Assembly (NCBI GenBank): GCA_947172415.1
Contig: OX359191.1
Coordinates: 7,115,130-7,179,129 of the forward strand
DNA: 64,000 nucleotides
Reading direction: 5' to 3'
Origin: Chondrosia reniformis
Lineage: Eukaryota; Porifera; Demospongiae; Chondrillida; Chondrillidae
Shown here: positions 29,633 through 62,826 of the stretch, in pieces
Numbering within the stretch: the stretch's first letter is position 1
Layout: each line of letters begins with the position of its first letter
Notes under the pieces: model-generated
Database searches by the model: none
The model's input: only the letters and a program-made list of their open reading frames with translations
Told to the model about the DNA's origin: nothing
Program-made: the position numbers and the translations under genes

Positions 29633-30181
29633 CAGTGGGCTCTCATTTATCCGACGACATTTGTTCCCAGCAAAATGTGCTGGATAAATGGGATGTCGGA
29701 TAACAAATATAGACATACAGTTACCTTTATCATGGAAGAAAGACAGAAAGACAGTGCTATATAGTACAAGCTCTTCAAAAGGAATAGGTGAAATGGACAA
29801 ACTTTGAGAGCGAATATTGCCGAACCAAATCCAAAGAGCCTCCTCTAGCTGCGCAAAACGTCCCTGACAGTGCTTGGTCGAGCTGGAGTCCTCAACGCTG
29901 GCCCACTTGTCTGCATCACGAAGGATATCACTAATCGTTGTTCGCCCGATATCAACAGAATCTTCTTTAAAAATACTTCAAAGTCGGACGGATAAGTGTG
30001 AAATGTATGGAGAATCAGCGCGTGGTTCCCACGCTGCAGTGCCGGATACGGATATCCCAGTTTCGGATAACTCAGTATAATTTCCTATACTTTTGTATGG
30101 CAAAATTTTTGTCCCTAAGTTCAAACACCGGATATATGAGATTTCCGGATAAATCAGGTCCGGATAAATGAGAGCCCACTG
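29633..30181 (-). mobile_element. pogo/Tigger-like non-autonomous element, 549 bp
   Basis: It has ends CAGTGGGCTCTCATTTATCC in inverted orientation, a TA target duplication, and an unoccupied homologous site in K1. The minus strand keeps a helix-turn-helix (IGRTTISDILRDADKW) and a CENP-B-like piece (LEEALWIWFGNIRSQSL). There is no catalytic domain. It lies in a K2 intron and is a different subfamily from 23047-23708. Confidence 0.8.
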
Positions 30182-31816
30182 TATATAATTGTTTAAATTT
30201 ACATTTAAGTATACATTTGGCATGTTTTACTTGTACATATGTATATAGATGAAGTGTCGAATAGTTGATCTAGAGGAAAAGATAAGAGCCATTGCTGCAC
30301 AGAAGGAGGATCTTAGTAAACATCTCCATGACAACCAGGATGAAATTTATAAGATGCAAAATGAGGTTAAAGCAAGTCTGGCTAAGCGATCTTATTCCTT
30401 TGTACTGAGTGAGTATGTATCCATGGTAACTGAAGCTGAGAAACATCGCGTGGAAGGAGCTCACAGTAGAGTTCAAGTGAGATCTCTGAGAAAACTGGTG
30501 AAGCAGCTGCAGCAAGATATGGACAGGAGCAACAGGTTAGCTTGGAGATACAGTATATACTAACCTTACTCTATGTATGTACGTACATACCAGTATGTGT
30601 GTAGGTGCACACAGTATATACAGCTAAATAGTGTGCAGTGATGTTTCCATTTCTCTTGCAGATTGCTAGCTTGCACAATTGGGTTTATCCAGGATGTGGA
30701 ACCATGCTTCAGTCAGAACACCATTCTCCTCAACAAGTATCGAGCTCTGGTGAGGCAGCTTCAAAGTGAGAAGGGAGTAGCATGGGCAGATGAGGACCAG
30801 GAGGCCCATGAGAACACGTTTAGATCATCAGTCCAGTTGGATTCCCCTCCTGCACTCTCAAAGACCACATCCCCCACATCACCTGCAGCTGGTGACTCAA
30901 AGACCACTCCCCCTACATCACCCAGTAATTCAGAGGGTTCTCCCCTTTCTTTACCTAATTTACATTTGAAGAGTACATCTGTAAGAAGCAATACCACTCC
31001 ATATCCACTGGCTTCAAAGCAGGCTGTACCTCCTGGTGAAATGTCAACCATGCCTCCTCCTAGCTCAGTGTCAAGTCTACCACAACCTCCTACTAGCATT
31101 ATGCCACCTCCCTCCAGCAGTGTCCTCTGTACACCAGTAAGGGTGACAGCACTCACCTCTTTCAGCTCCTTCACGCCCTCTCCAGCTGTTGCACGCCTCC
31201 TCAGCTCAATGAAGACCATGGGCCACTCCTCCTTACGTAAGAAGGTCCCTGAAGCAGTTAGACCTGTCATCCAACCATTTGAGGAGAAGCAGAGAAGAGA
31301 TGGCATCACACCAATTGGAAGCAGAAGTAACACTCAAAGGAAGACCGCATTACGCAACAGTGAACACTCTTTGAAGTCAAACACAGTCTCCAGTCCTGAT
31401 GATCTACCAAATAGTAGAATGGACCTTAGAAGCATGCCCATCCCAAAGCTGGCATTTGAGGACAACTTTTGCTCTCCAGATCCTCCTCCTTGTAAGTCAG
31501 GGGACCCACTGAATGAGACATTTACTGTGAATGAACACAACAGTGGAGTTCTAAAGAGGTCACATGACACTTATTCAGCTAGAAGGACACCCAAGAATCA
31601 CCAAAAACTTTTAAAGGTCTTAGGTATGGATTATTTAATTGTCATCTTAATGTTGTCAGTACCTTTTTCACCAGAGCTTCGATCAGAAAATGTTGAAACC
31701 TGTTTAGTATCTGCTGCATTTATACGTAATAAATTATATGTAGTTACCAATACATTAGATATATATGTAGATAATATGTAATATGATACTATTATATGCA
31801 TATGTACAAGTAGTAG

Positions 31817-37000: not shown

Positions 37001-40000
37001 AACAAGCAATGGGTCTGTGTGTGTGGGTGGGCATCTATCACTTTGGACAAGTCCATCTGGTGATGTGAGACCAACACTTGTTCAGCAAGTGATGAGGCCA
37101 ACACATCCCCCCCATTCCTGAGTGTTCTCCGATGTTCTCCAAGGCGATGATCTAATGACATGCCAGTCTGCCCAATGTAGGATTGTTGACACTCATTGCA
37201 AGTTATGCTGTAGATCACCCCTTTCCTTTTCCCTCTGGAACAGGGTCCTTCGGATTGACCAGCTCTTGCCTCAGAGTTCGGAAGGGACTAAAGGTGACGT
37301 TGATGGCCAGGGTGTCAGTATCTGCGAATGGACTGTGATAGCCCATGGATATAAGGGATGGTCACTGATGCCCGTGCTGTCTGTTCCTCAGCATGGCTGT
37401 TGTATCTCACATGACCTATCACTATCTGTTTGCCTTTTGTACTTATACAGTAGATGAAGGCAGCCGTACGTTGTCGAAATGTCTAAGAGAACCATTTTCA
37501 TGTTGGCTGCCGTTTACAAGTAAATCGAATTCAGAAAGATACTTTTGCAGCGTCAACATAGTTCACAATTAATATCTACTAACATAAGTTGAATAGCTAA
37601 ACTCTTACCTACACTATCTCTTTACACCTTATGACTATATATGGTATACGTACTGTACTGATTGAAAGTAATGTGAGAGTCCCCGCGAGGGTCTCCCACC
37701 CACTCGAGAGGCCTCGAGAGGCCTCGCGAGCGCTCGCAGCACGTTATCACCTCGCAGGGTGTATAAACGCCTTAAATCGTTCGCTACTACGTGTTAAAAT
37801 AGGCATTTAGTCGTTATTTGTTATTCTGAAACGTTATGACAGCGAAAAATTTAATCTCCGTGGAGTGGCTCGAGTCGCGCGACCAAGGAAACATCAATAA
37901 AGTCAATATAAAACACGTAGTAGAGCCTGGTGTGGAAGATATTTCAGTGGGGGCAATCGTCAAAGTGAAATTTGGCAACAAAATTTACAGCGCCAAAGTT
38001 TTAGACTTGCTTTCGTGGAAGCCTGGCAAGAGGAAAAGTAGGAAGAGGCCTGCAAAAGAGAATGTAAGTTTTCTTGAAATTAAAATAAGGGGTAAGCCAC
38101 TTACGAATTTGATTATGCTGCACTTAATATCCATATCGTAGGTCATTAAAAAGGCAAAAGTAACGCGCAAATCTAAGCAAGTGAGTCATACACCCTACGT
38201 GCATCTAGAGTAACCAATCAATAATCGGCCACTCGTATGGTTATTATTCTTTTGTGTGTGCTTAATTCCCACTGTAGATCACTAAAAAGGCAGATACTGC
38301 GACTCGAAAATCTAAGCAAGTGAGTCAATCAAAAATACATGCATCTATCAATTCATCAAATTTATAAATGATTATTGTTTTGTTTTCACAGAAATGGCTG
38401 GGAGTAGGGAGTCCAGTGAGAGCCCCATTAGGGACAATCAGCAACACCAGTCAGCCTTCTACTACAGTGGCTCTGACCAATCTGTCCCCTGTTCGCTGCT
38501 CTTCCTCACACTCATCCTCACTACTCTCTGCTTCCTCCATCTCAGTTTCGCCCATCACCCCAACATATTCACCCACTACACACCCTGCCCTTTCCTCCAC
38601 ATTAGTCTCTCCTCGCATCCCAACACAGTCACTTTCGGCAACCCCAAGACGTTCATTAACCTACAGACTGTCTTCCTCCACCATCTCACCACCACTCCTT
38701 ACTACACCACATTCATCGACCTACCATCCCCCAACAGCTCCACTTTCACCAATATATCAACCCATAATTCATCCTTCACACTACACTGATCCCTCCCAAG
38801 CCCCACTAACCCATCAGTGCCATTACAATTATCCTCACTACACTCATCTTCCTGTGCCCACTCCACCCCCTATGCATCCAGCCCTCTCACCAATGTTAAC
38901 ATACCCACCATATCAAGTCATCTACCCTCCTACCCCTACTTGTGCTTGCACTCCACGCCCTACTTGTGCTTGCACTCCACGCCCTACTTGTGCTTGCACT
39001 CCACGCCCTATAGCTACTTGTGCTTGCACTCCACACCGTTCTGCTCCTGATGTGGATGAAGAGGAGTCATTTATAAAATTTGATGAGGTTTTTGAAAATT
39101 ATACTAGTGGTGAAAACCTTAAATTTCAGCAGGCAATAATAGACAATACCTATCAAAAGGCCTCATCAAAAGGAAACCTGGCTGTCCTGCTAAGTAGAAA
39201 GGCCTTTACAAGAAGAGAACGGAGGAGAGCTAACTGTGATGGAGATGCAAGATATAAAAAGGAAGCCTTATCTCCAAGCCGGCTGGATGCTATTAAAAGA
39301 GCAATTGGGTCGATCTACCCTAGGCGATATGGAGAAGAAGAAAAGGATTGGTGGAGACCATTTAAGCAGGCAATAAATGAGAGTTGCCGCAGATTAAATA
39401 GAAATAAAAAGTTCTGCTAATTATAAACTAAATCTACTACTATATAGTAAATTTCTTGTTAAGAACATTTATGAGCCAAAATACTCCGTGAATCCAACCA
39501 TCATCAATGAATGCATGTGAATATACCGAAAAATAGTAATATAGTAATATAAAAATAGTAATATAGTAATATAAAAATAGTAATATAGTAATATAAAAAT
39601 AGTAATATAAAAATAGTAAAAGAAAAATAGTAATATAATAGTCCACAATAATAAATAATATCACTCTCCAGTTATTCCACCTTCCTTGGCCACAATTAAT
39701 GGTAACACTGAATGCGTGTGTGAGATATATTTAATACATTTAGTTATGGACATTTTTAGCCTCCAAAATTGCTGAATTCCTTGCACCAATTCTTCTTTTG
39801 ATAAAGGTTTCACCTGGCGTGCCAGGTAATGTTTTAATTCTTTCCAAACCCTTTCAATAGGGTTCAGATCAGCACTGCTGGCAGGTGTCTTCCACCAATT
39901 AATTTTCTCATCAATGTAGAACTGCTTTGCCTTCTTGCTAGTGTGTTTTGGATCGTTGTCCTGCATAAACTTGTAACCATCTGCAAATGTGTCCTTTAGA

Positions 40001-43000
40001 AATGGCAGGAGATGATCTTTCAAAATTTCAATGTAAAGATCTGCATCCATTATTGAATCAAATATACAAATTTTTGTAGCCCCCCGTTTCGAAATACCGG
40101 CCCAAACATTTACTTTCAAGGCATGTTTTGCTTGTGGCTTCAGCATCCTTTCCTTCCCAACTTGTACCCGCATATAATCAGCATGTCTTCTCAACTGCAC
40201 TGAACTCTCATCAGTCCAAATCACGTCATTAAATTCATCTTTGCTCTGCAGACACTTTAGTGCAAATGCTTTTCTGTTAATTTTATTTGTTTCACTGATC
40301 ATGGGCCCAAAACGAGTTCGTACAACTTTCCACTTGAGATTTTGCCTTAAGTGAGCTCTAATCGCCGATGAAGAAATTATTATGCTGTACTCTTTGTTGA
40401 GAAGGTAAGCAAGTTCCCTTGAAGAGAGCTCATCGTCTTCTTTCAAGCGATTGTTTAAGAAGACTCCCATTTCTGCCGTTATTTTGGGACGTCTTCCAGA
40501 TCGTCTGAAGTCTTGCAATCCTTCACCAGTCTCCCAGCGCTGAATCCACCTTCGAACAGTTTGTGCGGTTGTTGGAAAGCCTTCTTCGCTTAATATTCCA
40601 ACGATTTCTCCTACCGTCTTTCCATCCGTTTTTAAAAAAACGATTCTCTGTCGAACGTATGGATTTAAACGACGAGGCATTCTTCGAGAACAAACAGAGA
40701 GATTATTTTTTAGATCACACTAACGAAAACCAATAATATTTCACGCCTTATCGGTAAAGAAGTGTGCTAACGAGATGCCTTATCGTTATATAAACGTGCT
40801 AACGAGATGCGAGCGTTTGCGAGGCCTCTCGAGGCCTCTCAAGGCCTCGAGTGTGCTTGCGAGGGACACGCTTATTACTTTCAATCAGCACTGTATGTAC
40901 TATCCAACACTGACTTGTTATACAGAGAGGTATCTTACCTTGTCTTTGTGGTACACATTAGCTTTACGTTCCTCTGTAAGATGTTGTACTACTTGTAACT
41001 GACCTTCATAACAGGCTAGCAGTAGAGCTGTGTTACCATCCTATAATAAGAAATATGTAAACTCATTGAAATCAGTTACAATACTTCAATTATTGAAATT
41101 CATACAAGTGCTATACTGCTATATAGTTCACAATATTATGTTGTTAAAACATAAAGTACTTAAATTTATATATAAAAATGGTAAAATCACAAGTAACTAC
41201 ATTACATGATCAGCCATGGCCCTTGCTATCTTTCAAGTGCTACATACAAACTTATATATTACTAGCGGCTATTTCTATGATATGTTACACCAACTAACAG
41301 AGTCAACCGTATGGTATATCAACTTCACATGTACTAGTAAGATTCATTGGCAGTTATTTAATGTATATAGCTTTAATAAATACAACTATTACATATTAAT
41401 ACTCACATTGCTTTCCTCTTCTAATTTGACATGATGTGTATCAATTAAGCAACTGATGATTGCTTGCCTACCATTCATAGCTGCCTTCATTAGAGGAGTT
41501 ACACCTTCCTGTGTACATAAGAAGGGAAATATTTGAGATTGGAAACTTCAACATACAACAAGTTATAGTTAACATCATTTAATTCCAAAGCCGAATACAC
41601 ATTCATTTATTGTTTACAATATGATATAAACATTGTTACAGATCCTTACTTGTATATACGTACTTCTAAATACAATTAGTACATACAACTAGTACATACA
41701 ACTAGTACATACAATTAGTACATACAACTAGTACATACAACTAGTACATACAAATACGTAGTAGTTATGAGTTTCGTTACGGTTAGGAATTGCATTAAGA
41801 GATGATTGGCATGTGAAGATTTAAAGGAATATTGAAATATAAAACTCGTAATCTTTTACAGTATGTCTAACTCCTACACTTGAAATAACCCCCCCACCTT
41901 TAACTCAAAGTAATGAAGTGTCTAAGAATGATTTAACAATTATAACTTCAGAAATGTCAGGGACTGGAATAATGACCAATGAGAAATTTGAGGATCCCTT
42001 TGTCGACTTGGATGAAGACAAATCCACAATGGACAAGGACCAACATGTAATTAACTCAGTTATCATTTGTTATGTCTCACTCTTCTTTCTTAGTTGTTTT
42101 TAAATAAAATATTCAATCAGTGATTATCATCTAATACAGTAGCAATGATAACCTCAAATAAACCTACAAGTTCTAACAAAGTCAATATTAATAATACCCA
42201 CACGTTCTATATAAGGATATATGTTATACATACGTATGTACTAGTGGAATTAGCAAATATGTAATCACATTATTTTAGTTCACCATTCCTTATACAATTA
42301 CCTTAGTTACCTCACTATAGCAATATAAGAGACACTAACTCATTTCTTACCTTATTCCTTTCTTCAGGAGAGAACTTCAGTTCTTCAACAATGTGGCTCA
42401 CCATTGCAGGATTGTCTTGTTCATTTCTACTGGCATAGTGAATTATACTGTCTCCATAAACATCAACATCATGGAGTTTACCAGCTTCTATGAACTTTGG
42501 TAGTAGGAACTTCAGTAAATCCACATTGCCACTACAGGCAGACCAGTGTAAGGCATTTCCATCATACTGGATTAGGAAGCATAAGACAGGAGCTTAAAGG
42601 TTTATGACAAAGAAGTGATAAAGACATTCAGAAACATACTATATACCATACACTTGCACTATATCAACTCCTAAACAGTATGTTTTATATGTAAATTAGT
42701 GAGAATTTGTGTCCAAACACTGGACACTAATATACTCAACATTACAGGGATATCATGGATACTTGATTAACAATGGCCCTTATGACAGGTAAAGTGTAGA
42801 GCACTGTTTCCATACTACAAGATACACATACGTAATTATGGATTTCAACATGAAAAAAACATACAAGTGTAGCAATGGTACACTTGTAGTTAATATGTAA
42901 ATCAGGACCAGTATATCTACTTCAAATTGTTCACTAGACTATGGGGACAGCATATACTGCTAATCATCCAAATGAAGTGGAATTTATATGTTTACATAAT

Positions 43001-46000
43001 ATTGCTGATCATGTGACCTTCCAATCAAGTCAATAGTGGCACTGGTGCCTTTGAATTAGTACAAATGTTTAGGTTGGTAGACATTGTGCTCTACCAATTG
43101 TGGTCTAAATATTACATAATAATCAATACATTGCTATCAATGCAAATGTGTCACTCAAACTGTAAACCAATCAATCAATATTCCACCCCACACTAACAAC
43201 AAATCTACTTCAGAGAAATGACATATTGTGCTTTTGAAGCATCCAGTAAAGCAGAGCATTTGAAATTAAAGATTAAGAAAGTCCTTTGCAAAGTCCCATC
43301 AGGCTACACCCTTCTGAACTAAATAAATAAACTCATATATAGAAGATGCATTAATTTTTGACTAAGTTCTACAAATGTGTTACCTAATCAAATTATAAAA
43401 AACTGATTCTCTCTTTTGAATCTCTTTTGAAAAAATTAATTTTCTCTTATAAATCATCATATGTGACCTTCCACAGTAAACAGGGTTATCCTGTAAGTTA
43501 TATAATACAAAGATACTTTACTATAATGTCCTGAGTGGCTAGGAAGGCTCATGCTGAATTTGATTTACTTGTAAATGCTAGCTGACATGAAAATGGTTCT
43601 CTTAAGGATACAAGCACTACTGTATAAGTACAAAAAGCAGACAGATAGTGATAGGTCACGTGAGATACAATAAAGCATGAACAAGGAGAAAAACAGGAAG
43701 CACAAGTCAACAATACACTGTACCTTAATCTGTAAAGTGACAAGTTGGTAAAATCAAATAATAGTAAGTTAAGTGTGATACCAGTCCAATAGGGTAGCAT
43801 ATACCGTTTTCAGATGGGCATCGAAAGTGGGTCGAAACCGAGTTAAATCGTTCACAAGAAACCGCAAAAGCGGGTCGAACCCGGGTTAGCGAAGCGAGTT
43901 CGACCCATGTACGAAGCAGGGTCGAACCCAGTTTAGCTTATTACGAAAGCGAGTTAAAGATGGCGGAGCGAGGACGAACTTGGACGGACGACGAAGTGAC
44001 TGCGTTATTGAGCATTTGGAGAAGACCTACAAATCGGCCATTGATAGGCTTCGAACTAGTGGTATTGGTGTCGAATCAGATGATGACCTTGAAGATCACA
44101 ACATTTATGTGAACTTCAAGTGGTTTTGGGAGCTTCACTTTGTAATGAGGAGGAGAGCAGTAGAGAGCATTGCTAGATACCTTCCAATTTTCCAGCCAGC
44201 TGTCACCAGGGGGAAGTTCATTTGATGGAACAGAGGACACAACCATATTGCAGACTCCAGCAGCCAGTCCCATAGCCACTCAGCAGCCTGAATCATCAAT
44301 GCAACCGGGGCCATCCACGCAAACGGGGCCATCCACGCAACCGGGGCCATCCACGCAAACGGGGCCATCCACGCAACCGGGGCCATCCACGCAAACGGGG
44401 CCATCCACGCAAACAGGGCCATCCACGCAAACGGGGCCATCCACGCAACCGGGGCCATCCACGCAAACGGGGCCATCCACGCAACCGGGGCCATCCACGC
44501 AATCGGGGCCATCCACGCAACCGGGACCATCCACGCAACAAAGACCATCCAAGAAACGCAAGCTTACAAAGTTAGACAGGGTGGAGAAGTCTAACAAAGT
44601 TATGATGGAGACATTTGTTGCTGCACAAGAAAGAAGCCGGTAGGAAATGATGAAGTTGGAGCAAGACAGGATGAAATGGGAACAAGAGCAAGCTAAGAAA
44701 GCAGAAGAGAAGGAAGAAAGGTTCATGAGCTTAATGAAGGACATGCTAACAATGCTAATGCCAGCACCCCCACCAGTTATGCCACATTTGCCAGTGCCAC
44801 ATCCAGTGCCTGGTGTGCCCTGGCAGCTGCAGGATTATCCACCAGGTCCTATGATGGGTTATCCGGCCGTTAATGATCATGCAGATGATGGTGAAGATGA
44901 AGAGTAGTTGTAATGTTAGCATTGTGACTAGACTAGTTTAATTTACAATACTTTGCCTTATATTCGTTTATATTAATCATTACTAAACAGTGTCAAAGTA
45001 GTCACAAAGGGCTTCCCTAATGTTCTGCCCAGTTGTACTGACTGTCGCAGCAGAAGATGTTGATACATGCGTTATTTCTTCTCTTTCTATATTAGATATC
45101 CTCTGTATCCACTCTTCTTCACATGTATCACCTTGTATTTCACACAGATTGTGCAATACACAACATGCAGTCACTAGAGTAGGTACTGACTTAATGTCAT
45201 TATCATTTTGTTTCATGAGTGACCTCCATCTCCCCTTCAGTCGCCCAAAAGCATTTTCTACTACCACACGTGAACGACTTAATTGGTAGTTAAATTTTCT
45301 CTCCTTTCTTGTTAAACCTGTATCAGAGAAAGGTTTAAGAAGCCAACTTTTAAGTGGGTAGGCAGGGTCACCCAAAATAACCAAAGGAATGGGTGTGCCA
45401 CATAATGTTCTTGTCCAGTTAGGTAAATTTTGCTTTCACATTTTCTGTAAAGTCTAGAGTTAGCCAACACCCTGGCATCATGCACACTACCTGGCCAACC
45501 AACATAAACATCCAAAAATCTGTAATCATGGGATACTAAAGCTTGAAGTATTGTAGAATGATACCCTTTCCGGTTATAATAATCCAATGGATTTTCCTTT
45601 GGAGCAATGATTGGTATATGACTTCCGTCTATGGCACCAATGCATTGTGGAAATCCCCATTTACTGAAGAAACCATCAACTATATTTCTCAACCCTTCCC
45701 CTGTTGGGATATCAATATACATTGGTGCCATATGTTGAACGATAACACCACATACATCATGTACAACACGACATCCTGTTGAAATGCCAACTCCAAATAA
45801 GTGGCTAATGGTACGATATTCTATATTGGTTCCTAGTCTCCATAAGCAAATGGCAAGCCTTTGTTCAACAGTAAGGGGTTTCCTAACAACATGTTGTCTT
45901 TGGAGGTAAGGTTTAAGTTGTTGGCAAAGGAATTGAAACGTACTCCTAGATATTCGAAAATTTTGCTTCCATTCTTTGTCACTCCAGTTTCCAGCAATGT

Positions 46001-49000
46001 TCTCCAAAAAAGATTGATTCCTTCTTTTACTCCAATGCATTCTTCTGCTCACGCATGCAGACGAAACACGATGCAGTATAAATCGATAAAAATTTCCTCT
46101 CTCTTCTTCTTGAACAGCATTAAAACATAGAATACGTGTTCTTCTAGCGATATTCCTTGCCATCAGTGAACGTTTACGTTCCATACGTCTTCTTCGTAGC
46201 CACAACAGAACGAATACAACGATAAAAGCAAGCCGAAAATTTTCGTACGCCATCTTGATCTGATACGCTACGCGAATAAATACTACTAACAAAATCGTCT
46301 TGTGAACGGAAACCGAGTTCAACCCGGATTAAGCTAACCCGGGTTCGACCCACTTTCGATGCCCATGTGAAAACGGTAATAGATTCCTGGCATTGAGCCC
46401 CTTCCCCTATTGAGAGGGGCCTGCTCATGTTGGATATGACAGGACCCCAACAAGCAATGGTTCTGTGTGTGGGGGTGGGCATCTATCACTTTGGACAAGT
46501 CCATCTGGTGATGTGAGACGAATACATGTTCAACAAGTGATGAGGCCAACACACCCTCATTCCTGAGTGCTCTCCGATGTTCTCCAAGGCGATGATCTAA
46601 TGACCTGCCAGTCTGCCCAATGTAGGATTGCTGACACTCATTGCAAGGTATGCTGTAGATCACCTCTTTCCTTTTTCCCTCTGGAACAGGGTCCTTCGGA
46701 TTGACCAGCTCTTGCCTCAGAGTTCAGAAGGGACGGAAGGTGACATTGATGGCTAGGGGGTCAGTTTCTGCGAATGGACTGTGATAGCCCATGGATATAA
46801 GGGATGGTCACTGATGCCCGTGCTGTCTGTTCCTCAGCATGGCTGTTGTATTTCACGTGACCTATCACTATCTGTTTGCTTTTTGTACTTATACAGTAGA
46901 TGAAAACAGCCGTAGGTTGTCGAAATGTCTAAGAGAACCATTTTCATGTCGGCTAGCGTTTACAAGTAAATCGAATTCAGAAAGATACTTTTGCAGCATC
47001 AACACAGTTCACAAATAATATCTACTAACATAAGTTGAATAGCTAAACTCTTACCTACACTATCTCTTTATACCTTTGACTATATATGGTATATGTACTA
47101 TCCAACACTGACTTGTTATACAGAGAAGTGTCTTACCTTGTTCTTGTGGTACACATTAGCTTTACGTTCCTCTGTAAGATATTGTACTACTTGTAACTGA
47201 CCTTCATAACAGGCTAGTAGTAGAGCTGTGTTACCATCCTAAAGTAAGAAATATGTAAACTCATTGAAATCAGTTTTAACACTTCAATCATTGAAATTCA
47301 TACAAGTGCTATACTGATATATAGTTCACAATATTATGTTGTTAAAACATAAAGTACTTAAATTTATATATAAAAATGTTAAAATCACAAGTAACTACAT
47401 TACATGATCAGCCATGGCCCTTGCTATCTTTCAAGTGCTACATACAAACCTATATATTGCTAGCTGCTATTTCTATGATATGTTACACCAACTAACAGAG
47501 TCAACCATATGATATATCAACTTCACATGTATTAGTAAGATTCATTGGCAGTTATTTAATGTATATAGCTTTAATAAATACAACTATTACATATTAATAC
47601 TCACATTGCTTTCCTCTTCTAATTTGACATGATGTGTATCAATTAAGCAACTGATGATGGCTTGCTTACCATACCTAGCTGCTCTCATTAGAGAAGTTTC
47701 ACCTTCCTGTGTACATAAGAAGGGAAATATTTGAGATTGGAAACTTCAACATACAACAAGTTATAGCCAACATTATTTAATTCCAAAGCCGAATACACAT
47801 TCATTTATTGTTTACAATATACACTTTATTGATATAAACATTGTTACAGATCCTTACTTGTACTTCTAAATACAATTAGTACATACAAATAGTATAGTAA
47901 TGAGTTTCGTTGCACTAAGAGATGATTGGCATGTGAAGATTTAAAGGAACATTGAAAATTAAAAGTCTTAATCTTTTACAGTATGTTTAACTCCTACACT
48001 TGAAATAACCCCCCCACCTTTAACTCAAAATAATGAAGCGTCTAAGTATGATTTAACAATTATAGCTTCGAAATGTCAGGGACTGCAATAATGACCAATG
48101 AGAAATTTGAGGATCCCTTTGTCGACTTGGATGAGGACAAATCCACAATGGACAAGGACCAACATGCATGTAATTAACTCAGTTATCATTTGTTATGTCT
48201 CACTCTTCTTTCTTAGTTGTTTTATAATAAAATATTCTATCAGTGATTATCGTCTAATACAGTAGCAATGATAACCTCAAATAAACCTACAAGTTCTAAC
48301 AAAGTCAATATTAATAATACCCGCACGTTCTATATAAGGATATATGTTATACATACGTATGTACTAGTGCAAATACTTAACATGTAATCACACCATTCTA
48401 GTTCACCATTCCTTATACAATTACCCCAGTTACCTCACTATAGCAATATAAGAGACACTAACTCATTTCTTACCTTATTCCTTTCTTCAGGAGTGAACTT
48501 CAGTTCTTCAACAATGTGGCTCACCATTGCAGGATTGTCTTGTTCATTTCTACTGGCAAAGTGAATTAGACTGTCTCCATATACATCAACATCATGGAGT
48601 TTACCAGCTTCTATGAACTGTGGTAGCAGGAACTTCAGTAAATCCACATTGCCACTAAAGGCAGACAAGTGTAAGGCATTTCCATCATCCTGGATTAGGA
48701 AGCATAAGACAGGAGCTTAAAGGTTTTTGATAAAGAAGTGATATAGACATTCAGAAACACACTATACCATACACTTGCACTGGTACTGTATGTTGTATTT
48801 ATGCATGTGAGAACACCATACACTGGATACATATATATTCAACATTAGAAGGATTATTTCATGACTATATATATATATATGTATATATATATTTTTTTTT
48901 TCCACTGAGTGACACTGCATTAGTTACCCAAAATTACTTGAACTATAAATATATACAGTTACATGCACTAACACTCATCATGAGAAGGATTACAGATAGA

Positions 49001-52000
49001 GAGTTAATTACACAACTCCAAATGCTAAGTGACCAAAGTCTTATCTTTGTCGGGAGACTGAAGTTAAATATCATTGAAAGACAACAAATGACTATTAGAC
49101 AAGTCTCCCTAAGTAACAAATCTGGTATCTACCAACACAAGTTGTATCCCTTAACACTTACCTACACTATATCTCTATACCCAATAAGTATATGTATATT
49201 ATCCAACACTTACAGTACAACAATACTTACTTGTTATACAGAGAAGTGTCTTACCTTGTTCTTGTGGTACACATTAGCTTTACGTTCCTCTGTCAGATGT
49301 TGTACTACTTGTAACTGACCTTCCAGACAGGCTAGCAGTAGAGCTGTGTTACCATACTAAAGTAAGACACAATGCAAATTAAATTAATCAAATTAATACA
49401 GTCAATTGTTAAGAACTGTATATGTACGTACATAGATACAAATGTAATAGAAATCATTAATAATGATAATATTAATAATATTAATAATTAATAGTCACTA
49501 AACACTACAAATTGATTATCATTGTTAATAGCCATAGACAGCTGTTTCCTTATTAGGACTCATCAATATGGCATACAATGGAAGTTTGAGTGGTTAGTCT
49601 GCTAATAAGTACTCTCAAAAGCAAAAAAAGCTTGTGGTTTCCTTATCAGCAGATAAGGTGGCTAGGGGGAGACTCTGGTTCCCATCAAGCGAACTTCGGT
49701 TCCACCCATTTGCTCATTGCGCTCCTCAGTGGGCAGGGTAATATCCAGAGTTCAATGATGATACTGATGCTTTAGGATCTGCGTTAGATCTTAAAGTTCC
49801 CCTATTATTTTTCCTTAGGGTTTAACTGTTAGTGACTCCTGATCACAGGTAAACGCTTTAAACTTGCAGTCTTTTCTCATTATATGCACTTTCAGTATAT
49901 AATTCATTTTATAATCTATACCATGTTAGAATTAATGAAGATATTTCAATTAATAATATATTCAAATTATCTATAATCCATAGTGTTTACAAGTTTCAAA
50001 TATTATCACAAAACAACCTATGAGTTATTTATTGTACTATATTGGTTAAACTTATATACGTACATATGTAGTAAAATAAATATACGTATATAGGTAACTA
50101 AAGAGTTGTGTACTTTACGTAGCACAGTACACTCACTACATTTTCTTCTTCCACATTGTGCCCTGCTTCCAACAAGAGCTTCAAGACCTCCAAATCTCCA
50201 CTTCTACCAGCTTGTAGCAAAGACTATTAGTTTGGGATCAAGTAAGGAATCTGAATCATGAATTGAATGTAGATTATACATAATATAAGTCTTATATACA
50301 ATATGTATGTACGGTACAGGTCAAAAGAAACTTGGCGATTTCCGCAAGGGTTTGTATGGGAATCCGCAAATTTTCTGCGTACTGCTGTACAGCCATTTGC
50401 GGTTTGCCATATCAGCATCTGCGGTTATCGTCAGCGATGTTTGTAAACAAACGAACAATACGTACGTACGTAAGGTGTCGATAGGGAAGCCATGCAATCT
50501 ACGAAGAAAATTTATACGTTACGTATGTCGAGCATTTCGATCTGTACCTATGTATAAGTATCGTCAAAATAAATAATACGAAAGTATGTAGTCAACAATA
50601 AAATAATTAATACAATGTATACAAACGTACGTACGTATAATAAAGAAACTGAGTCTAAAAGTGTATGTAAATTCCTATTAATGCCCCGAAGGTTCCCCGT
50701 TTACCTCTACCACAATCGGTAGAACTTTCTCAAGGTGATCTATGTACCTTGAGCAAACTTCAGGTGTCATCTTTTTCCAATAAAGTTTGATGCCTTCTTT
50801 TAGCTCAGCAAGATTCTTCGGCTTATGACGATCACGGAGAAAGGTCTTCATTGAACCCCAAACTTTCTCTATGGGATTTAGATCCGGACTCTCTGCTGGA
50901 CTTTTCCACCATCTTACTCTGTTATCCATGAAATAAGTTTGAATATAACGGCTTGTATGTTTTGGGTCATTATCCTGATAGAGGCGATGACTTTGAGGAT
51001 ACTTCTCCCTAATAAAGGGTAGCAGTGAGGCTGTAAGGATGTCTCCATATCTTGTGGCTGTCATCGTCCCGTCAAATATAACAATAGAAGTAGCTCCTCT
51101 CCTTGATATACCAGCCCATACATGCACTTTAGGGGGATGCTTGTGTTTGTATTTTAGCTTCCTGGGAGCTCCTCGTTTCCTAAAGCATTTCCTCCTGTGC
51201 CTGTCAAGTTGAAAGGTTGACTCATCGGTGAAGATGACATCATTGAACTGCTCCTGCTCTGCTAGTCTTTCCTTGCACCATTCCAATCGTTTTTCTTTGT
51301 TGGCATCTCTAATTGCTTGGCAATATCGTGCAGTCGTGAAGGTCCATCCGAGGTCTAGTCTAGCCCTTGCTATGGTTCTAACAGAGTACGCTATAGATGT
51401 CTCACCAAATTTTCTTTGCAATAGGTCCATCAAATCGGAGGCTGTCAGTTCATCATTGACTACCATCTTATCATCTATATACTTATAATGCGCCTTGGGT
51501 ATTTTCGTCACACGACCACTTTTAGGTCGATCTTCACAGCTTCCAGTTTCCTTCCATCGGGCAAGAGTATTCAAAACAGTTTGCTTTGTTGTATAGATTC
51601 TTTCAATTGCTAAAAGTTTTAAAATATTGGATGCTGACCCTTTACTTTGGAGATGGAGAGACACAATTCTTTCTCTTTGATACTTAGTTAATGGCATAGT
51701 TTATTACTGGAAACTCATACGTATTATTCATTATCATTATTCATATTATTTATAGAATATTACAGGATACTCATATTATTTAATTCGCCAATCAAAACTC
51801 TACGATTAAACACTGAGGTCCGCCGAAAGAATCTGTGAAAATCCTCGGAATTCGTATAGATTCGCAGATTAACACCTATATTCTGAGGATTTTCACAGAT
51901 TCCTTCGGCGGACCTCAGTGTTATTTAATTCGCCAATCAAAACTCTACGATAAAACACTGAGGTCCGCCGAAAGAATCTGTGAAAATCCTCGGAATTCGT

Positions 52001-55000
52001 ATAGATTCGCAGATTAACACCTATATTCTGAGGATTTTCACAGATTCCTTCGGCGGACCTCAGTGTTTTATCGTAGAGTTTTGATTGGCGAATTAAATAA
52101 CATGAGTATCCTGTAATATTCTATAAATATTCGTACATGCATTTGGTAATCATTGCGATTAGAAGAAGCAATTAAGAGCGAGATGGCAAGCAAAATTATG
52201 GTAGAATGGATCGAAGGAAGGGCAGCTGGCAAAAGATCGTATGTAACAAGAAACAGTATCAAAGAAGGAACTGTAGCTCCTGGAAAAACTGTTAGCATGA
52301 TTTGGGGAAAGTCAAGAAGAGTTTATGATGCGATTATAGTGGAAGATATGCTGACATCTCCCGAAATCCCAGTTCAGTCTACCTCATCAAGAGCCAAAGA
52401 CACAGCTGAGGATGATTTCCTCTTTGAAATGGGTAGCCCAATTGCAACCTCTGAGCCCAAAGAAAGGCAACATAACTGTACTCAGTCTGAAGCTATTATT
52501 CAGAAGCTAATTGATATGGTATCGGATTTAAAAGACACAGCATCTGATTTAAGAGATACTACAGAAAGACATTATTCCAGATTACTTGCTCGTATGGATG
52601 CTTTTGAGAGATCTATGGAGGAAGTCAAAGAAAAGATTGTGGCGCAAGGTCTAAATAGCAACAGCTGCATACCTGAACCAGCAAATAGCACCTCCTTCTT
52701 CGATGGATTTTCTTCATCTCCTTATTATGAACCACTAGCTGTTGTTAACCCTCCACTGCAGGTACCAAACAGCCACCAATACATGTTTCCACTGCAGGAT
52801 ATGACCAACAAGCACCCAAGGACTGAGGACTCAGGGCAAAATGTAATTCCAGAAGAGGTAATTATGCAGGCAATGCAGTGCTGCAAGTCCAGAAGAAATT
52901 TGGCTGGGAGATTGTGTAACAAAATATTTCCTGAAGCAGTAAGGCAAGCAAGTAATTGTAGAGGAGTTCTAGGGAAGAGACCTCTCAATCCAGCGACAGT
53001 AAAGGCAATTTATACAGTTTGCTTAAAAAAATTTCCCTTAGACAGATTTGAGACGAATCTGCAGGCTGAAAAGGAGATGAGGAATGCTATTGATGAAGCA
53101 TGCAGGAAGACAAAGAAAACATTCCAAGAAGCAAACAATGAATTTTAGTTTTTTTTTACGTTATATGTACATCTATGTGGCATATTTAATCGATTATCGA
53201 TTCAATTTCTATTGTCCTTGAGTAATGATCGACTGGCATTTCGTACGTAGTTGAAGGATTACGATTACGAGGATGACGATTATAGACTACGAATTGTATT
53301 CGTCATTTATAAATTCGTTACGGACGTATATATACCATGTACGCATACGGACAAGGAACATTAGAAGTCTACGTGTCTAAAAAACGCATATACGTATATA
53401 CGTACGTACGTATGTACGTATTCGCAAATTTCCGCACTTGCAGCTTTCCTCAGTTGCTCTCCCAAAATCCCTCAGACAGCTGCGTGGCCAACTGCAGACG
53501 GTGGCGTTGTCCAACAGCGGAAAAATGCAAAAATCGCCAAGTTTCTTTTGACCTGTACCGTATGCATGTACACAAATACAGTCATGGCTGTTTAGTATGG
53601 CCTTTGATAATCCAGTTCCCTCGATATCAGGCTGACTTTTCAGGGAAACGAGTCTTAATAGTATAATTTTGTACATGTGAAACCAGCCCTTGGTTTACCT
53701 TTTGTATATCTACATATACGAAATTGACAAGTTAATCTAATGAATATTAGCCGACCTACTGCCAAACGATTTTGGTCTGCAAAGTATGCTGATTTAGTAT
53801 GTGCACTGGAAATGTACCAGTCAGTGATAAAGTATTACTTTTAAAGTAGTGTGTGTTTTGTACTAAGAAAGAGCGCTTTGTTAGTTTATTCATACAATAA
53901 TCTTACAATCATGGTTATGTCATGGTGTCAGGGTGACATTTTATAGACTTTCTTAATCCAGCAATGTTTGGAGAAACCAATGCAGTCGGATTGAACAGTC
54001 ATGACTGTATTACATATAATCAATCAATCACACACATGGTGATCTGTATACGTATATACTATAACAAATGTACACTTTCAATTCCTTATATGGTCAATAT
54101 TTATTGTAATGGATGGGAATGGAATAAGAACTGTATACATCTGCAAAACCTACTCCTTTCTTCTTCTTTCTGGACAGAGATCCTTCCTTCTTAGTAGCAT
54201 AGTCCCAAAGTTCCTTCAACTGTAAAAGTAGCTTTCCAAACTTGTTTGAGACAATTTCATAGTAAACTGTAACAGCTTTAATCACAGCATCACAAGTATA
54301 TGTCTCTTTCAGTTCCTAGAAGAGGTGGAAAAGAAATTAAAATATTCTGCTAGCTGAACATAAAGCCTAATTGTACAGTTTTAGAATTGCATTTGTCACA
54401 TGTTGGTATGTACGTATGTACGTACATGCATAAACACATTATTTCTATATAGACTACCTCAATACTGCCTTCTTCTGACTTAAGACTTTTCTTCAGATTA
54501 ACTATCATTTTAAAATCTGCCAAATCTTCTGATTCACTTAAACTCTTCATTTTCTCTTCTACTTGAGATAAAATGGCTGCCTTTGGTTCAATTTGCAGCT
54601 GGTATTTGTAGAACTTGTCTTTTATCAAAGAAACCTTTCAAGTAAAGATATGTATGTTAAATAAATTCATAAATTACAAATTAGCATTCCAAATATTATG
54701 TAAATCATTTGGTTATTATTCACATAGGTAACAGAGGAGTGGCAGTGGTCACCATAGCAACTAGGTATAAGCTATATATATAATGTCTACATGCACATAC
54801 AACAATATATAAATAAGTATCAGGTTGTATATATACTATATCCACAGACCCAAAGAATACAATTTGTACATTGTGTAGTCACTACTTACAACATCCTCCT
54901 CTGATATGGTTTGCTTTTCTTCCTCTTTCTCACGACTGGATTTCTCTTCAAGTTGCTTCTTCATTGACTCCACCTTCTCAACCAAGTCTACATCCACCAG

Positions 55001-58556: not shown

Positions 58557-61500
58557 GTGTACAATGAGACAATCAGAGATTTGTTGCTCCCATCAGGACC
58601 CCTGAAAATGAGGGACGACAGAGGAACCTTGGTAGTCAATGGGCTCTCATTACATAAGGTACACACTTATAGTAGTGATCGATTACACACAGATACATAC
58701 GTACGTATGTATGCTACCTCCATCCGCTCCCCCTCCTCCACCCCCAGCCTCACAATGCTAATGAGCTCCTGGTCATGCTGGAGCATGGCAATAAGAACAG
58801 GACACAACACCCAACTGAAGCCAATGCTACCTCATCCTGATCACATGCTGTGTTCCAAGTGCATATCCACCAGAAGCCTCGTACAGCTGGTCTGAGCACT
58901 GAAGTGAGAACTGCAAGGCTGTCCCTGATTGATCTTGCTGGATCAGAGAGGGCTACAGTCACATCTAACAAGGGAGCTCACATGAGAGAAGGAGCCAATA
59001 TTAACAGATCTTTGCTGGCACTGGGAAATTGTATCAATGCACTGGCAAACAAAAAGGTGGGCATTCTCAAGAAGATGTAGCAATTATTTGAGTGATATTT
59101 GTATTTAATTTCTTTGCAGAAAAAACTGGTTATGTACCTTACAGAGAAAGTAAATTAACCAGACTCCTGAAGGATTCACTAGGAGGATCATGTCAAATTG
59201 CCAATATTAGGTATGTAATCGTACGTACGTGCTAATACATACACAGGTACGTTGGTATTTGAGAATTCAAACGTACATAATATGACATGCACTTTTAAAT
59301 TATATTATATTTCAACTATTGCACATTTAATCAGACATGAATTGTTTTGTACTGTTTATCAATGTTGCTTTATTTGTGTTTAATGTAGTCCGTCAGCACT
59401 GACCTTTGATGATACTTATAATACTCTGAAATATGCAGACAGAGCAAAACAGATCAAGTCACAAGTAAGAAATCTTAACTGTGTACATCAACACAACATT
59501 GTGCATGTCAATATTTCTCCTTCCATGTTCTTCTACTCTACCTCCCTCTACCTCTCAATTGGTTAGGAATGTGGTGAGCTTGGACTATCACCTGTCAAAG
59601 TACAAGGAGATTGTGGAGGACCTTCAGAAGGAGATCATTCTTCTCAAATCAAAGCTGGCAAGTCAAAGTGGAGGCAGCCAGATTAAAGGCATTGATATCA
59701 GATATGTATGGTTGCCATGGCAATGTACGCAAGGAGCTGGCAGAGGCAGAGTGTAGTGGTGAACTGTTGAATGCAAAAAGAAAGAGAAGAGAGATTCTGT
59801 ATAGAAGATGTGAAGCATTTAATACATCACAGGAAAGAAGAGATAATGTACGTATGTATATGTTTAAAGCTACATAAAATGTACGTACGTACCTACGTAT
59901 GTATGTGTATATCCTGTGTATATACATACATATTTCGTTACATTGAAAGCTATATAATTTTTTTAGCTATATACAAACTATCAACTGTTAGCTATGAACT
60001 ACATATGTACATATATACGTATATAATTGTTTAAATTTACATTTAAGTATACATGTGACATGTTTTTCTTGTACATACGTATATAGATGAAGTGTCGAAT
60101 AGTTGATCTAGAGGAAAAGATAAGAGCCATTGCTGCGCAGAAGGAAGATCTTAGTAAACATCTCCATGACAACCAGGATGAAATTTATAAGATGCAAAAT
60201 GAAATTAAAGCAAGTCTGGATAAGCGATTTGATTCCTTTGCACTGAGTGTGTATGTATCCATGGTAACTGAAGCTGAGAAACATCACGTGGAAGGAGCTC
60301 ACAGTAGAGTTCAAGTGAGATCTCTGAGAAAACTGGTGAAGCAGCTGCAGCAAGATATGGACAGGAGCAACAGGTTAGCTTAGAGATACAGTATATACTA
60401 ACCTTACTATATGTACGTATGTATATACGTACCAGTATGTGTGTAGGTGCACACAGTACAGCTAAATAATGTGATGTTTCCATTTCTCTTGCAGATTGCT
60501 AGCTTGCACAATTGGGTTTATCCAGGATGTGGAACTGTGCTTCAGTCGGAACACCATTCTCCTCAACAAGTATCGAGCTCTGGTGAGGCAGCTTCAAAGT
60601 GAGAAGGGAGTAGCATGGGCGGATGAGGACCAGGAGGCCCATGAGAGCACGTTTAGATCATCAGTCCAGTTGGATTCCCCTCCTGTACACTCAAAGACCA
60701 CATCTCCCACATCACCTGCAACTGGTGACTCAAAGACCACTTCCCCTACAACACCCAGTAATTCAGAGGGTTCTCCCCTTTCTTCACCTAATTTACATTT
60801 GAAGAGTACATCTGTAAGAAGCAATACCACTCCATATCCACTGGCTTCAAAGCAGGCTGTACCTCCTAGTGAAATGTCAACCATGCCTCCTCCTAGCTCA
60901 ATGTCAAATCTACCACAACCTCCTGCTAGCATTATGCCACCTCCCTCCAGCAGTGTCCTCTGTACACCAGTAAGGGTGACAGCGCTCACCTCTTTCAGCT
61001 CCTTCACGCCCTCTCCAGCTGTGGTACGCCTTCTCAGCTCAATGAAGACTATGCGCCACTCCTCCTTAGGTAAGAAGGTCCCTAAAGCAGTTAGACCTGT
61101 GATCCAACCATTTGAGGAGAAGAAGAGAAGAGATGGCATCACACCGGTACCAATTGGAAGCAGAAGTAACACTCAAAGGAAGACAACATTATGCAACAGT
61201 GAACACTCTTTGAAGTCAAACACAGTCTCCAGTCCTGATGATCTACCAAATAGTAGAATGGACCTTAGAAGCATGCCCATCCCAAAGCTGGCATTTGAGG
61301 ACAACCTTTGCTCTCCAGATCCTCCTCCTTGTAAGTCAGGTGAGCGGCTGAATGAGACATTTACTGTGAATGAACACAAAAGTGGAGTTCCAAAGAGGTC
61401 ACATGACACTTATTCAGCTAGAAGGACACCCAAGAATCACCAAAAACTTTTAAAGGTCTTAGGTATGGATTATTTAATTGTCATTTTAATGTTGTCAGTA

Positions 61501-62826
61501 CCTTTTTCACCAGAGCTTCGATCAGAAAATGTTGAAACCTATTTAACATCTGCTGCATTTATACGTAATAAATTATACATACATAGTTACCAATACATCA
61601 GATATGTAAATATAATATATATTGCTGTTATATGTATATGTAAAAATAATCTAATGCACCACTTTCCTACATGTTATGCCTATTCTTAAAAATAAATTAA
61701 AAATCTCATAGGAACTAAGCCTGTTAGAGCTTTGGATGAGCTCGAGCATACAGGAGACTTTGCTTCGTTTCTCAGAATTCCACCCTTCACCAGTGATCCT
61801 ACGTCTGGGTTAGTCTCCAGGACTGGTAGATCTGGAAGTAAATCACGTGAAGGAGCGTAGTGGTTGTTGCTACCTTCAGCCATGTTAGCTGGTCTCCGTT
61901 CATTGTCAGTTTCCTGTGAAAGTGGTATCCTGCTTTCAACTTCATTGTCAAGGTTGCAAGGATTCCCTACTCTTTGTCATTTTTTGAATCCTTGGTCATG
62001 CCAGTATGTATATATGTATGTACATACATATAATAATGATAATTGCATATATCTGTACATACATGCACGATACTCTTTCTCTTGGCTTGTTTTATGTACG
62101 TACATACATACAATATCATATGTATGATATGTTTCTCTTGTTGTAGGAGACAAACCTCCAGAAAGAGTAAAAAGTCAAAGCAACCAAACTACTTAACTCT
62201 AACTAAAGCTGCTGCTTCAAAGAGATATGTCACTAAATCCTCTAGATATTCAAAACGGTTTGTATCACAGTATATATGTATATGTATATGATAGGTTACT
62301 GTTGGCTGTCTTTAGGTATATACATATACGTACGTACGTATGTACATAGTATAGTCCATAAGTATATAATTAATAAAACACTACAATATTTCCTGTAATA
62401 TACCTATAGTATGTCCTGTAATGTACGTACAGTAGATATGTATGGTTGACATCAGAATAAACAATAAAAGAACAAAAATAGTTCTCCTATATATTATTAT
62501 TCTTACTCTTATTATTATTAAAGTGCCCATGCATGTACATACATTAATTATAAGGTGTAGATAGATGCCAACCAGTTCTGGTTAAGGGGCACAGGGTTAT
62601 ACCTGGACACGTATAAACCATTGCCACTTAAGGCTACCAGGCCGTCCGCCCAGGTACATAGCCCGACTGCCTTATTTTATATTAGCCGAAAAACCTGGAT
62701 TAGGATATTTCATATTCTTTCTTTAATAATGTACCTACTGTAGAGGTCACTTTGACAAAGAGAACTGTTACTCAATCTCATCTTCATTTTCAAGCAACAG
62801 AAGAACAGTTACAGGACATTGAATAG
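58557..62826 (+). pseudogene. K3: kinesin-8 (KIF18-like) copy with motor and tail exons, disabled
   Basis: Exons are 58557-58658, 58748-59056, 59120-59210, 59389-59464, 59559-59847, 60087-60373, 60495-61455, 62147-~62270 and 62744-62826. Motor motifs match K1, but switch I reads SS-stop-SHA (TGA 58838-58840, a CGA to TGA change). Exon 59120-59210 is one base short of phase and lacks three codons. The next acceptor is AA in place of AG at 59557-59558. A 26-bp deletion lies near 59665, and exon I gains two bases near 62165. The P-loop exon is absent. The 961-nt tail exon stays open, with the VAWADED element and a Ser/Pro-rich region. This is a pseudogene of a mitotic-type motor. Confidence 0.85.
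62350..62715. repeat. Insertion in last K3 intron, possible SINE
   Basis: It is absent from K0 and K2. It contains a GC-richer ~130-bp block (GGTTAAGGGGCACAGGGTTA ... CCAGGCCGTCCGCCCAGG) next to AT-rich sequence. I saw no convincing tRNA or pol III boxes. Confidence 0.3.

What the first reader, a model, noticed from the sequence alone, without database searches (positions are those of the whole stretch)
50312..53560. Second, diverged Tc1/mariner plus BEN element of almost equal size (divergent layout)
Ends, transposase and BEN gene all differ from element 1. Yet the transposase is again 339 residues, the accessory protein shares the N-terminal domain and the BEN domain, and total length is 3249 against 3241 bp. 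Gene order is reversed relative to element 1. Two independent cases in one intron set argue for a real, old partnership, or for repeated recruitment.
Basis: partly seen in the sequence, partly recalled or inferred. Interest (0 to 1): 0.85.

Follow-up and report, generated by a model that had tools for sequence, protein, structure and literature searches.

The report
Two-gene Tc1 transposon carrying BEN gene
This is a complete jumping gene that carries, besides its usual cutting enzyme, a second gene for a DNA-binding BEN-type protein that sits behind a mirror-image copy of the same apparent promoter, which suggests the two proteins work as a team.

Summary
Window 50312-53560 is a complete 3249-bp Tc1-like (DD34E) transposon with 35-bp inverted ends (33/35) and a TA target duplication. 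Two paralogous host copies in the window are empty at this site and hold a single TA, so the BEN gene is inside the mobile unit and is not a neighbouring host gene. Both ORFs are open. The transposase is 39% identical to element 1's. The second protein has an N-terminal domain shared with element 1 (6 of 5000 shuffles reach the score), a predicted long helix and a C-terminal BEN domain (two-element profile vs BEND3, E=1.1e-9). New here: the genes face away from a 105-bp inverted repeat (101/105), so each has the same CCAAT/TATA-like sequence 49-53 bp before its ATG. In element 1 the mirrored ends lie there instead. Element 2's non-coding parts are CpG-rich (o/e 1.6-1.9; host median 0.27) and its BEN ORF is CpG-poor (0.25). 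Best reading: a co-expressed accessory factor that binds the element's own DNA. Layouts differ and no eukaryotic genomes could be searched, so one old partnership versus repeated recruitment stays open. The near-equal lengths look coincidental.

The parts
50310..50311 (.). TA target-site duplication, left
   Evidence: paralogous empty sites carry a single TA here (5217-5218 and 20495-20496, positions derived)
50312..50346 (+). left terminal inverted repeat
   Evidence: 33 of 35 identical to the right end
50312..50677 (.). left non-coding region, CpG o/e 1.91 (1.44 with TACG-type arrays masked)
50678..51697 (-). DD34E Tc1-like transposase, 339 aa, open frame
   Evidence: DDE_3 E=2.9e-22; Sleeping Beauty SB100X chain 5cr4_A E=8.2e-25; triad D158/D242/E277
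51698..52182 (.). divergent intergenic region, apparent promoter region, CpG o/e 1.59 (1.56 masked)
51747..51851 (-). transposase-side arm of the central inverted repeat; TATAAATA at 51747-51754 (minus), CCAAT at 51788-51792 (plus)
   Evidence: 101 of 105 identical to the other arm (96%); box positions read from the sequence
52025..52129 (+). BEN-side arm; TATAAATA at 52122-52129, ATTGG (inverted CCAAT) at 52084-52088
   Evidence: box positions read from the sequence
51776..52065 (.). 145-bp tandem duplication (51776-51920, 51921-52065, 99% identical)
52183..53148 (+). accessory BEN-domain gene, 321 aa, one open frame
52183..52362 (+). N-terminal domain, residues 1-60, similar to element 1 exon 1; Tudor-like fold is a weak lead only
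   Evidence: 6 of 5000 shuffles; model of the element 1 copy, mean pLDDT 75.1; Foldseek top hit KDM4A double Tudor, E=0.18, not significant. In the low-confidence full BEN2 model this part has block pLDDT 34-43
52477..52644 (+). predicted long helix, possible coiled coil, residues 99-154
   Evidence: AlphaFold helix 99-154, block pLDDT 71-82 for residues 101-150
52831..53115 (+). BEN domain, residues 217-311
   Evidence: Pfam BEN 23.6 bits on the C-terminal 115 aa; two-element profile vs BEND3 7v9h E=1.1e-9 and BANP 7yuk E=5.8e-5
53149..53560 (.). right non-coding region, CpG o/e 1.90 (1.42 masked)
53526..53560 (-). right terminal inverted repeat
53561..53562 (.). TA target-site duplication, right

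Best explanation
Shown: a complete two-gene Tc1-like transposon in which transposase and a BEN-domain protein are encoded in opposite directions from mirror-image copies of one upstream sequence, inside one pair of inverted ends. Inferred: the insertion is recent and the mirrored sequence is a shared promoter; the transposase does the cutting and joining. The BEN protein is a co-expressed accessory factor that binds the element's own CpG-rich DNA (central promoter and/or ends) through its BEN domain, multimerises through its long helix, and contacts chromatin or partner proteins through its N-terminal domain. Its most likely task is to keep the element's promoters and ends accessible and to control transposase expression (anti-silencing or autoregulation). 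Direct help in assembling the transposase-end complex is the next most likely task.
For: Single mobile unit: TIRs, TA duplication and two empty paralogous sites. Both ORFs open; catalytic triad present. BEN homology to BEND3 (E=1.1e-9) and BANP (5.8e-5); these two human proteins are described as binding CGCG-containing DNA and being repelled by its methylation, and BANP has a coiled coil and needs oligomerisation for that choice (PMC11472053, abstract and Introduction read). Mirrored upstream sequence: 178 alignment columns, score 126 (maximum 22 in 1000 shuffles), ending 49 and 53 bp before the two ATGs, each with TATAAATA. Non-coding parts CpG o/e 1.91, 1.59 and 1.90; of 1069 host windows of 366 bp none reaches 1.4 (top 1.32; with arrays masked the host top is 1.22 against 1.44, 1.56 and 1.42). 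A second element with both kinds of protein lies in the same window, and its genes also have mirrored upstream sequence (its ends; score 47 vs maximum 15 in 1000 shuffles). Its ends carry an AGGCCTCG-type array (0 of 300 shuffles reach its best 7-mer or 8-mer count, 1 of 300 for 6-mers), with one CTCGCGAG, the only one in the window (6 of 100 shuffles have one), which I recall as the core of a BANP motif.
Against: CpG-rich ends are not special to BEN elements: the PIF/Harbinger-like element in the window has ends at 1.60 and 1.72. For stretches as short as the ends of that element and of element 1 (125-213 bp) the signal is less striking: 9 of 1084 host windows of 200 bp reach 1.4, top 1.92. 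Element 2 has no significant subterminal repeats (67, 73 and 240 of 300 shuffles reach its best 6-, 7- and 8-mer) and no CTCGCGAG, so no binding site is identified for its own BEN protein. Element 1's end arrays lie partly within its mirrored ends, so part of the left-right sharing is TIR homology. The isolated BANP BEN domain is reported not to distinguish methylated DNA (PMC10206803 abstract). Transposases of this superfamily generally act without a partner (recalled). The BEN2 model is poor (mean pLDDT 54.7); its top three PDB matches are BANP BEN domains but at E 0.42-0.86. Expression, binding, methylation and mobility are untested.
Confidence: 0.6

Rival explanations
1. The BEN protein is a direct transposition cofactor (end binding, nuclear import or complex assembly), like the Myb-like protein of PIF/Harbinger elements, and not mainly a regulator.
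For: Two-gene layout inside one pair of ends. A PIF/Harbinger-like element in the same window (43802-46378) has the convergent layout of element 1, with a transposase and a probable second coding region. Element 1's ends carry repeat arrays that a DNA-binding protein could use.
Against: The transposase keeps helix-turn-helix similarity of its own (HTH_32 E=1.9e-4, below Pfam's cut-off), and Tc1 relatives need no partner (recalled). Element 2 shows no subterminal repeat arrays.
Confidence: 0.25
2. The BEN gene is a passenger: host BEN-type genes were captured by chance, at least twice, and play no role for the element.
For: Different gene order and predicted exon structure in the two elements. 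Transposable elements do capture host sequence (recalled).
Against: Both accessory proteins share two domains, both reading frames are open, and in both elements the two genes have mirrored upstream sequence.
Confidence: 0.12
3. Nested insertion: a separate BEN-carrying element jumped into an ordinary Tc1 transposon.
For: The central inverted repeat with a 145-bp tandem copy could be a foldback insertion. One short inverted pair (16 nt, 88%) does enclose the BEN gene (52133-52148 / 53556-53571).
Against: That pair's right arm runs across the element's end into host flank, so it cannot be the end of an element nested inside; it is short enough to be chance. The other enclosing pairs are TACG-type arrays or the element's own ends. 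Element 1 has the same two kinds of gene in another arrangement.
Confidence: 0.05

Closest known systems
Tc1/mariner superfamily, DD34E Tc1-like group (Sleeping Beauty type)
   Same: DDE_3 nuclease with DD34E spacing, TA duplication, inverted ends; the one PDB match at E<=1 is Sleeping Beauty SB100X (5cr4_A, E=8.2e-25)
   Different: Carries a second, BEN-domain gene and a divergent mirrored upstream region; about 3.2 kb, where a single-gene element is typically 1.3-2.4 kb (size range recalled)
BEN-domain proteins BEND3 and BANP
   Same: C-terminal BEN domain (profile E=1.1e-9 and 5.8e-5); BANP also has a coiled coil (PMC11472053, Introduction)
   Different: One BEN domain at the C-terminus, a distinct N-terminal domain, and encoded inside a transposon
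PIF/Harbinger two-gene transposons
   Same: Transposase plus a separate DNA-binding protein within one pair of ends (recalled); a probable example lies in this window at 43802-46378
   Different: Unrelated transposase family (DDE_Tnp_4) and Myb/SANT-like rather than BEN accessory (roles recalled)
En/Spm TnpA and the VANC-type anti-silencing proteins of plant Mutator-like elements (recalled)
   Same: Element-encoded DNA-binding protein proposed to counter silencing of its own element
   Different: Different host kingdom, transposase and protein fold; anti-silencing is only inferred here
Ciliate Tec/TBE elements (PMC7325037, passages seen)
   Same: Tc1/mariner-related elements with a DD34E transposase and further ORFs
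   Different: Three ORFs and TIRs of about 700 bp; the second ORF of Tec is a site-specific recombinase; no BEN protein named in the passages seen
DUF4806 proteins, described as a BEN subtype (PMC11075544 passage citing Pan et al. 2023)
   Same: BEN-related; a DUF4806 row stands in the same Hydra-genome table as DDE_3, HTH_Tnp_Tc3_2 and HTH_32 rows (PMC7642931 passage; column heads not seen)
   Different: No DUF4806 match for BEN2 in Pfam up to E=10 (HMMER's filters drop most matches above about 0.1)

Membership tests
Tc1/mariner (DD34E) | DDE/D triad with 34 residues between the last two | tested here: met
   D158, D242, E277, spacing 34
Tc1/mariner (DD34E) | TA target duplication | tested here: met
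   two empty paralogous sites with a single TA
Tc1/mariner (DD34E) | terminal inverted repeats | tested here: met
   33 of 35
Tc1/mariner (DD34E) | N-terminal paired helix-turn-helix DNA-binding region | tested here: inconclusive
   HTH_32 22.3 bits (cut-off 33.7) and HTH_Tnp_Tc3_2 16.6 bits (cut-off 31.5)
Tc1/mariner (DD34E) | transposase falls in the Tc1 clade of a tree | not tested
   no eukaryotic sequence collection; SB100X match only
BEN domain family | sequence match to the BEN profile | tested here: met
   whole protein 21.1 bits vs cut-off 23.2, but C-terminal 115 aa 23.6; two-element profile vs BEND3 E=1.1e-9
BEN domain family | all-helical fold of the domain | tested here: inconclusive
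   five helices predicted, block pLDDT 54-74 in the region; BANP BEN is top match at E=0.42
BEN domain family | binds DNA | not testable with these tools
   needs a binding assay
Two-gene transposon with DNA-binding accessory protein (Harbinger, En/Spm type) | second gene inside the same ends | tested here: met
Two-gene transposon with DNA-binding accessory protein (Harbinger, En/Spm type) | repeated subterminal binding sites | tested here: not met
   no enriched shared k-mer in element 2; element 1 has arrays at both ends
Two-gene transposon with DNA-binding accessory protein (Harbinger, En/Spm type) | accessory protein needed for transposition | not testable with these tools
   needs an excision assay
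DUF4806 (BEN subtype) | Pfam DUF4806 match | tested here: not met
   absent up to E=1 and E=10, within HMMER's filters

The most novel reading that the evidence does not exclude
A widespread, old class of Tc1-like transposons encodes a BEN accessory protein that shields or opens the element's CpG-rich promoters and ends in methylated animal genomes. Cast-off accessory genes of this class are a source of BEN and DUF4806 gene families in animals such as Hydra.
Probability: 0.25. Interest if true: 0.85.

Novelty: new variant of a known kind. Interest (0 to 1): 0.62.

Why it matters
Tc1/mariner elements are usually described as one-gene transposons (recalled). A BEN-domain partner, seen in two diverged elements and apparently sharing a mirrored promoter, would make this a two-protein system. 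It offers a testable origin for some BEN transcription factors and possibly a transposon's own answer to DNA methylation in animals. Four searches of the held library paired 'BEN domain' with 'transposon' plus 'sponge', 'mariner' plus 'transposase', 'DNA transposon', and 'domesticated' plus 'transposase'. They listed three different papers: passages of two were seen and do not describe such an element; the third, PMC4641500, a histone-modification review, was seen in the listing only. The library lacks most subscription papers, and Repbase was not available.

Tried and rejected
Relatives elsewhere: viral contigs with BEN2, transposase 2, a two-transposase profile, a BEN profile, transposase 1 and the BEN1 C-terminus gave no confirmed relative; genome contigs with the transposase profile gave none. 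These scans start from two to six short peptide patterns and can miss relatives. The TIR as an exact pattern gave 0 in viral contigs and 0 in genome contigs. tblastn of transposase 2 found 1 phage record and 15 plasmid records at 21-28% identity, 11 of the 15 plasmid places annotated IS630, which gives no placement. BEN2 found none in phages.

'Inside-out' idea: element 2's central inverted repeat could be the abutted ends of an ancestral convergent element, for example from a circle or tandem dimer. The geometry fits, but element 1's ends and element 2's central arm show no similarity (322, 461, 425 and 411 of 500 shuffles reach the score in the four comparisons). Not supported.

BEN-specific CpG-rich ends: rejected as specific, because the Harbinger-like element shows the same. 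Shared subterminal motif in element 2: not significant. sigma-70 and terminator scan: at chance and not meaningful for a eukaryote. Rfam on 49000-55000: 0 matches at gathering score. Near-equal element length: taken as coincidence.

Fold evidence is weak. The BEN2 model has mean pLDDT 54.7 and no Foldseek match at E<=0.001; the N-terminal model also has none. The Tudor-like reading of the N-terminal domain rests on a Foldseek E of 0.18 and a profile hit (KDM4C) at E=1.4, neither significant.

Alignments A2 and A4 placed element 1's pieces wrongly against BEN2 and were not used; A5, A6 and A7 replaced them. Paper searches (two-ORF Tc1 elements, Amphimedon with Tc1, DUF4806, a broad one with 8,640 papers of which 30 were listed) gave no BEN-carrying Tc1 element in what I saw of them: listings, plus passages of PMC7325037, PMC4007536, PMC10027918, PMC7642931 and PMC11075544.
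Full report
What is there. The stretch 50312-53560 (3249 bp) is bounded by inverted repeats that match at 33 of 35 positions and is flanked by TA on both sides. The window is built of many near-copies of one host sequence, and this gives a clean test. Joining the two flanks of the element with one TA yields a sequence found uninterrupted at 5047-5369 (95% identical) and 20328-20661 (91%) (longer matches). In the first copy the bases around the join are identical. In the second there is a 6-bp difference three bases beyond the TA. The CGG... ends are therefore the true ends, and the simplest reading is that the whole 3249 bp arrived as one unit. Element 1 (37653-40893, 3241 bp) nearly passes the same test against copies near 47 kb and 17 kb, with a 4-bp difference at the join; two further copies, near 35 kb and 13 kb, align poorly there. 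These are paralogous empty sites, not allelic ones.

Transposase. The minus-strand ORF 50678-51697 gives 339 aa with Pfam DDE_3 (E=2.9e-22) and triad D158, D242, E277, spacing 34. It matches Sleeping Beauty SB100X in the PDB (E=8.2e-25). It is 39% identical (132 of 341 columns) to the 339-aa transposase of element 1. The helix-turn-helix profiles are below Pfam's cut-offs for this copy.

Accessory protein. The plus-strand ORF 52183-53148 gives 321 aa. Its C-terminal 115 aa reach Pfam's BEN cut-off (23.6 vs 23.2 bits), although the whole protein does not (21.1). A two-row profile of the BEN regions of elements 1 and 2 finds BEND3 (E=1.1e-9) and BANP (5.8e-5) in the PDB. A long helix at residues 99-154 is predicted. 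The first 76 residues resemble exon 1 of element 1's BEN gene (6 of 5000 shuffles reach the score); the C-terminal 120 residues do so strongly (0 of 5000); the middle does not convincingly (87 of 5000). The exon-1 domain of element 1 is modelled as a small beta fold (mean pLDDT 75.1) whose top Foldseek match is the KDM4A double Tudor domain, at a non-significant E of 0.18.

Promoter. The 485 bp between the divergent genes hold an inverted repeat with 105-bp arms, 101 of 105 matching, that end 49 bp before the transposase ATG and 53 bp before the BEN ATG. Read toward either gene, each arm gives ATTGG and, after 33 bp, TATAAATA (positions read from the sequence). A 145-bp stretch of arm and hairpin is duplicated in tandem. 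Upstream similarity between the two genes scores 126, against at most 22 in 1000 shuffles. In element 1, where the genes converge, the two upstream regions are the element's ends and are also mirrored (score 47, at most 15 in 1000 shuffles). So in both layouts the two genes have mirrored upstream sequence. I take this as the best evidence in the window that the two proteins are made together; expression itself was not tested.

CpG pattern. In element 2 the left end, spacer and right end have CpG o/e of 1.91, 1.59 and 1.90 (1.44, 1.56 and 1.42 with TACG-type arrays masked), against 0.54 in the transposase ORF and 0.25 in the BEN ORF. The host median is 0.27 for 366-bp windows, with 0 of 1069 at or above 1.4 (top 1.32 raw, 1.22 masked) (windows overlapping the three elements were left out). 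Element 1 is similar (ends 1.41 and 1.45; BEN exon 1, 0.98; BEN exon 4, 0.29; transposase 0.72), and so is the Harbinger-like element (ends 1.60 and 1.72), so this is not a property of BEN elements alone. For stretches that short it is also less unusual: 9 of 1084 host windows of 200 bp reach 1.4. The pattern fits a methylating host in which element promoters escape methylation, an inference; no methylation data were available. BEND3 and BANP are described as binding CGCG-containing DNA and being repelled by its methylation, and BANP needs oligomerisation for that choice (PMC11472053: abstract, Introduction). PMC10206803 (outline view with abstract and opening text) gives AAATCTCG as the optimal BANP site and reports that the isolated BANP BEN domain binds methylated and unmethylated DNA alike; I did not test that motif here. 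Element 1's ends hold AGGCCTCG-type arrays (0 of 300 shuffles for 7- and 8-mers, 1 of 300 for 6-mers; the compared stretches include part of the mirrored ends). They include the only CTCGCGAG in the window (6 of 100 shuffles have one); that this is the core of a BANP motif is recalled. Element 2 has no comparable array.

Mechanism. Shown: a complete mobile unit, two open reading frames, and mirrored upstream regions. Inferred: recent insertion, co-expression, BEN binding to the element's own DNA, oligomerisation, and a regulatory or anti-silencing task. I put the regulatory or anti-silencing task ahead of a direct transposition cofactor because Tc1-type transposases act alone elsewhere (recalled), and because the feature shared by the two elements is the mirrored upstream sequence rather than subterminal repeats.

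Comparison and novelty. The element meets the tested criteria of Tc1/mariner (TA, TIRs, DD34E); the helix-turn-helix test is inconclusive and no tree was made. A second BEN gene is not part of that family as I know it. Tc1/mariner relatives with extra ORFs exist (Tec/TBE in ciliates, PMC7325037, passages seen). The four that pair BEN domain with transposon terms listed three different papers, none of which describes such an element in what I saw: passages of PMC5704228 (where 'BEN domain' was found once, in the reference list) and PMC11075544, and the listing only for PMC4641500. A lead worth following: DUF4806, called a BEN subtype in PMC11075544 (passage), has a row reading 69 and 54 against 6 or fewer in the other counts, in the same Hydra-genome table as DDE_3, HTH_Tnp_Tc3_2 and HTH_32 (PMC7642931, passage; column heads not seen). 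BEN2 itself does not match DUF4806.

Limits. No host genome is held. The host looks like an early-branching animal, perhaps a sponge, but that is my recollection of gene style and was not tested. With two elements, no tree test of co-inheritance is possible.

Noticed in passing
43802-46378: A third DNA transposon, PIF/Harbinger-like: 44-bp inverted ends 93% matching, DDE_Tnp_4 matches on the minus strand split over two overlapping frames, and on the plus strand a probable second coding region beginning with a Myb/SANT-like stretch (PF13837 E=0.083, below cut-off) followed by PSTQ-rich repeats. Same convergent layout as element 1.
   Followed up: partly
37653-40893: Element 1's BEN gene is best read as four exons (37836-38063, 38142-38180, 38278-38319, 38392-39420; 445 aa). 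Exons 2 and 3 look like a tandem duplicate of each other, each in frame.
   Followed up: partly
37699-37740 and 40812-40863: Arrays of a 10-bp AGGCCTCGAG-type unit at both ends of element 1, including the only CTCGCGAG of the window, recalled as the core of a BANP motif.
   Followed up: partly
20495-20505: The paralogous empty site near 20.5 kb has 6 extra bases three bases after the TA. It does not look like a footprint of this element's ends and is unexplained.
   Followed up: no
1-64000: The window is a dense patchwork of near-copies (for example 16355-19101 vs 46379-49106, 93%; 30181-31806 vs 60019-61642, 94%), useful for spotting other insertions by empty-site comparison.
   Followed up: partly
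16118-16732: ORF with a weak GIY-YIG match (E=3.9e-4, 21.1 bits against Pfam's cut-off of 22.6), possibly a retroelement remnant.
   Followed up: no
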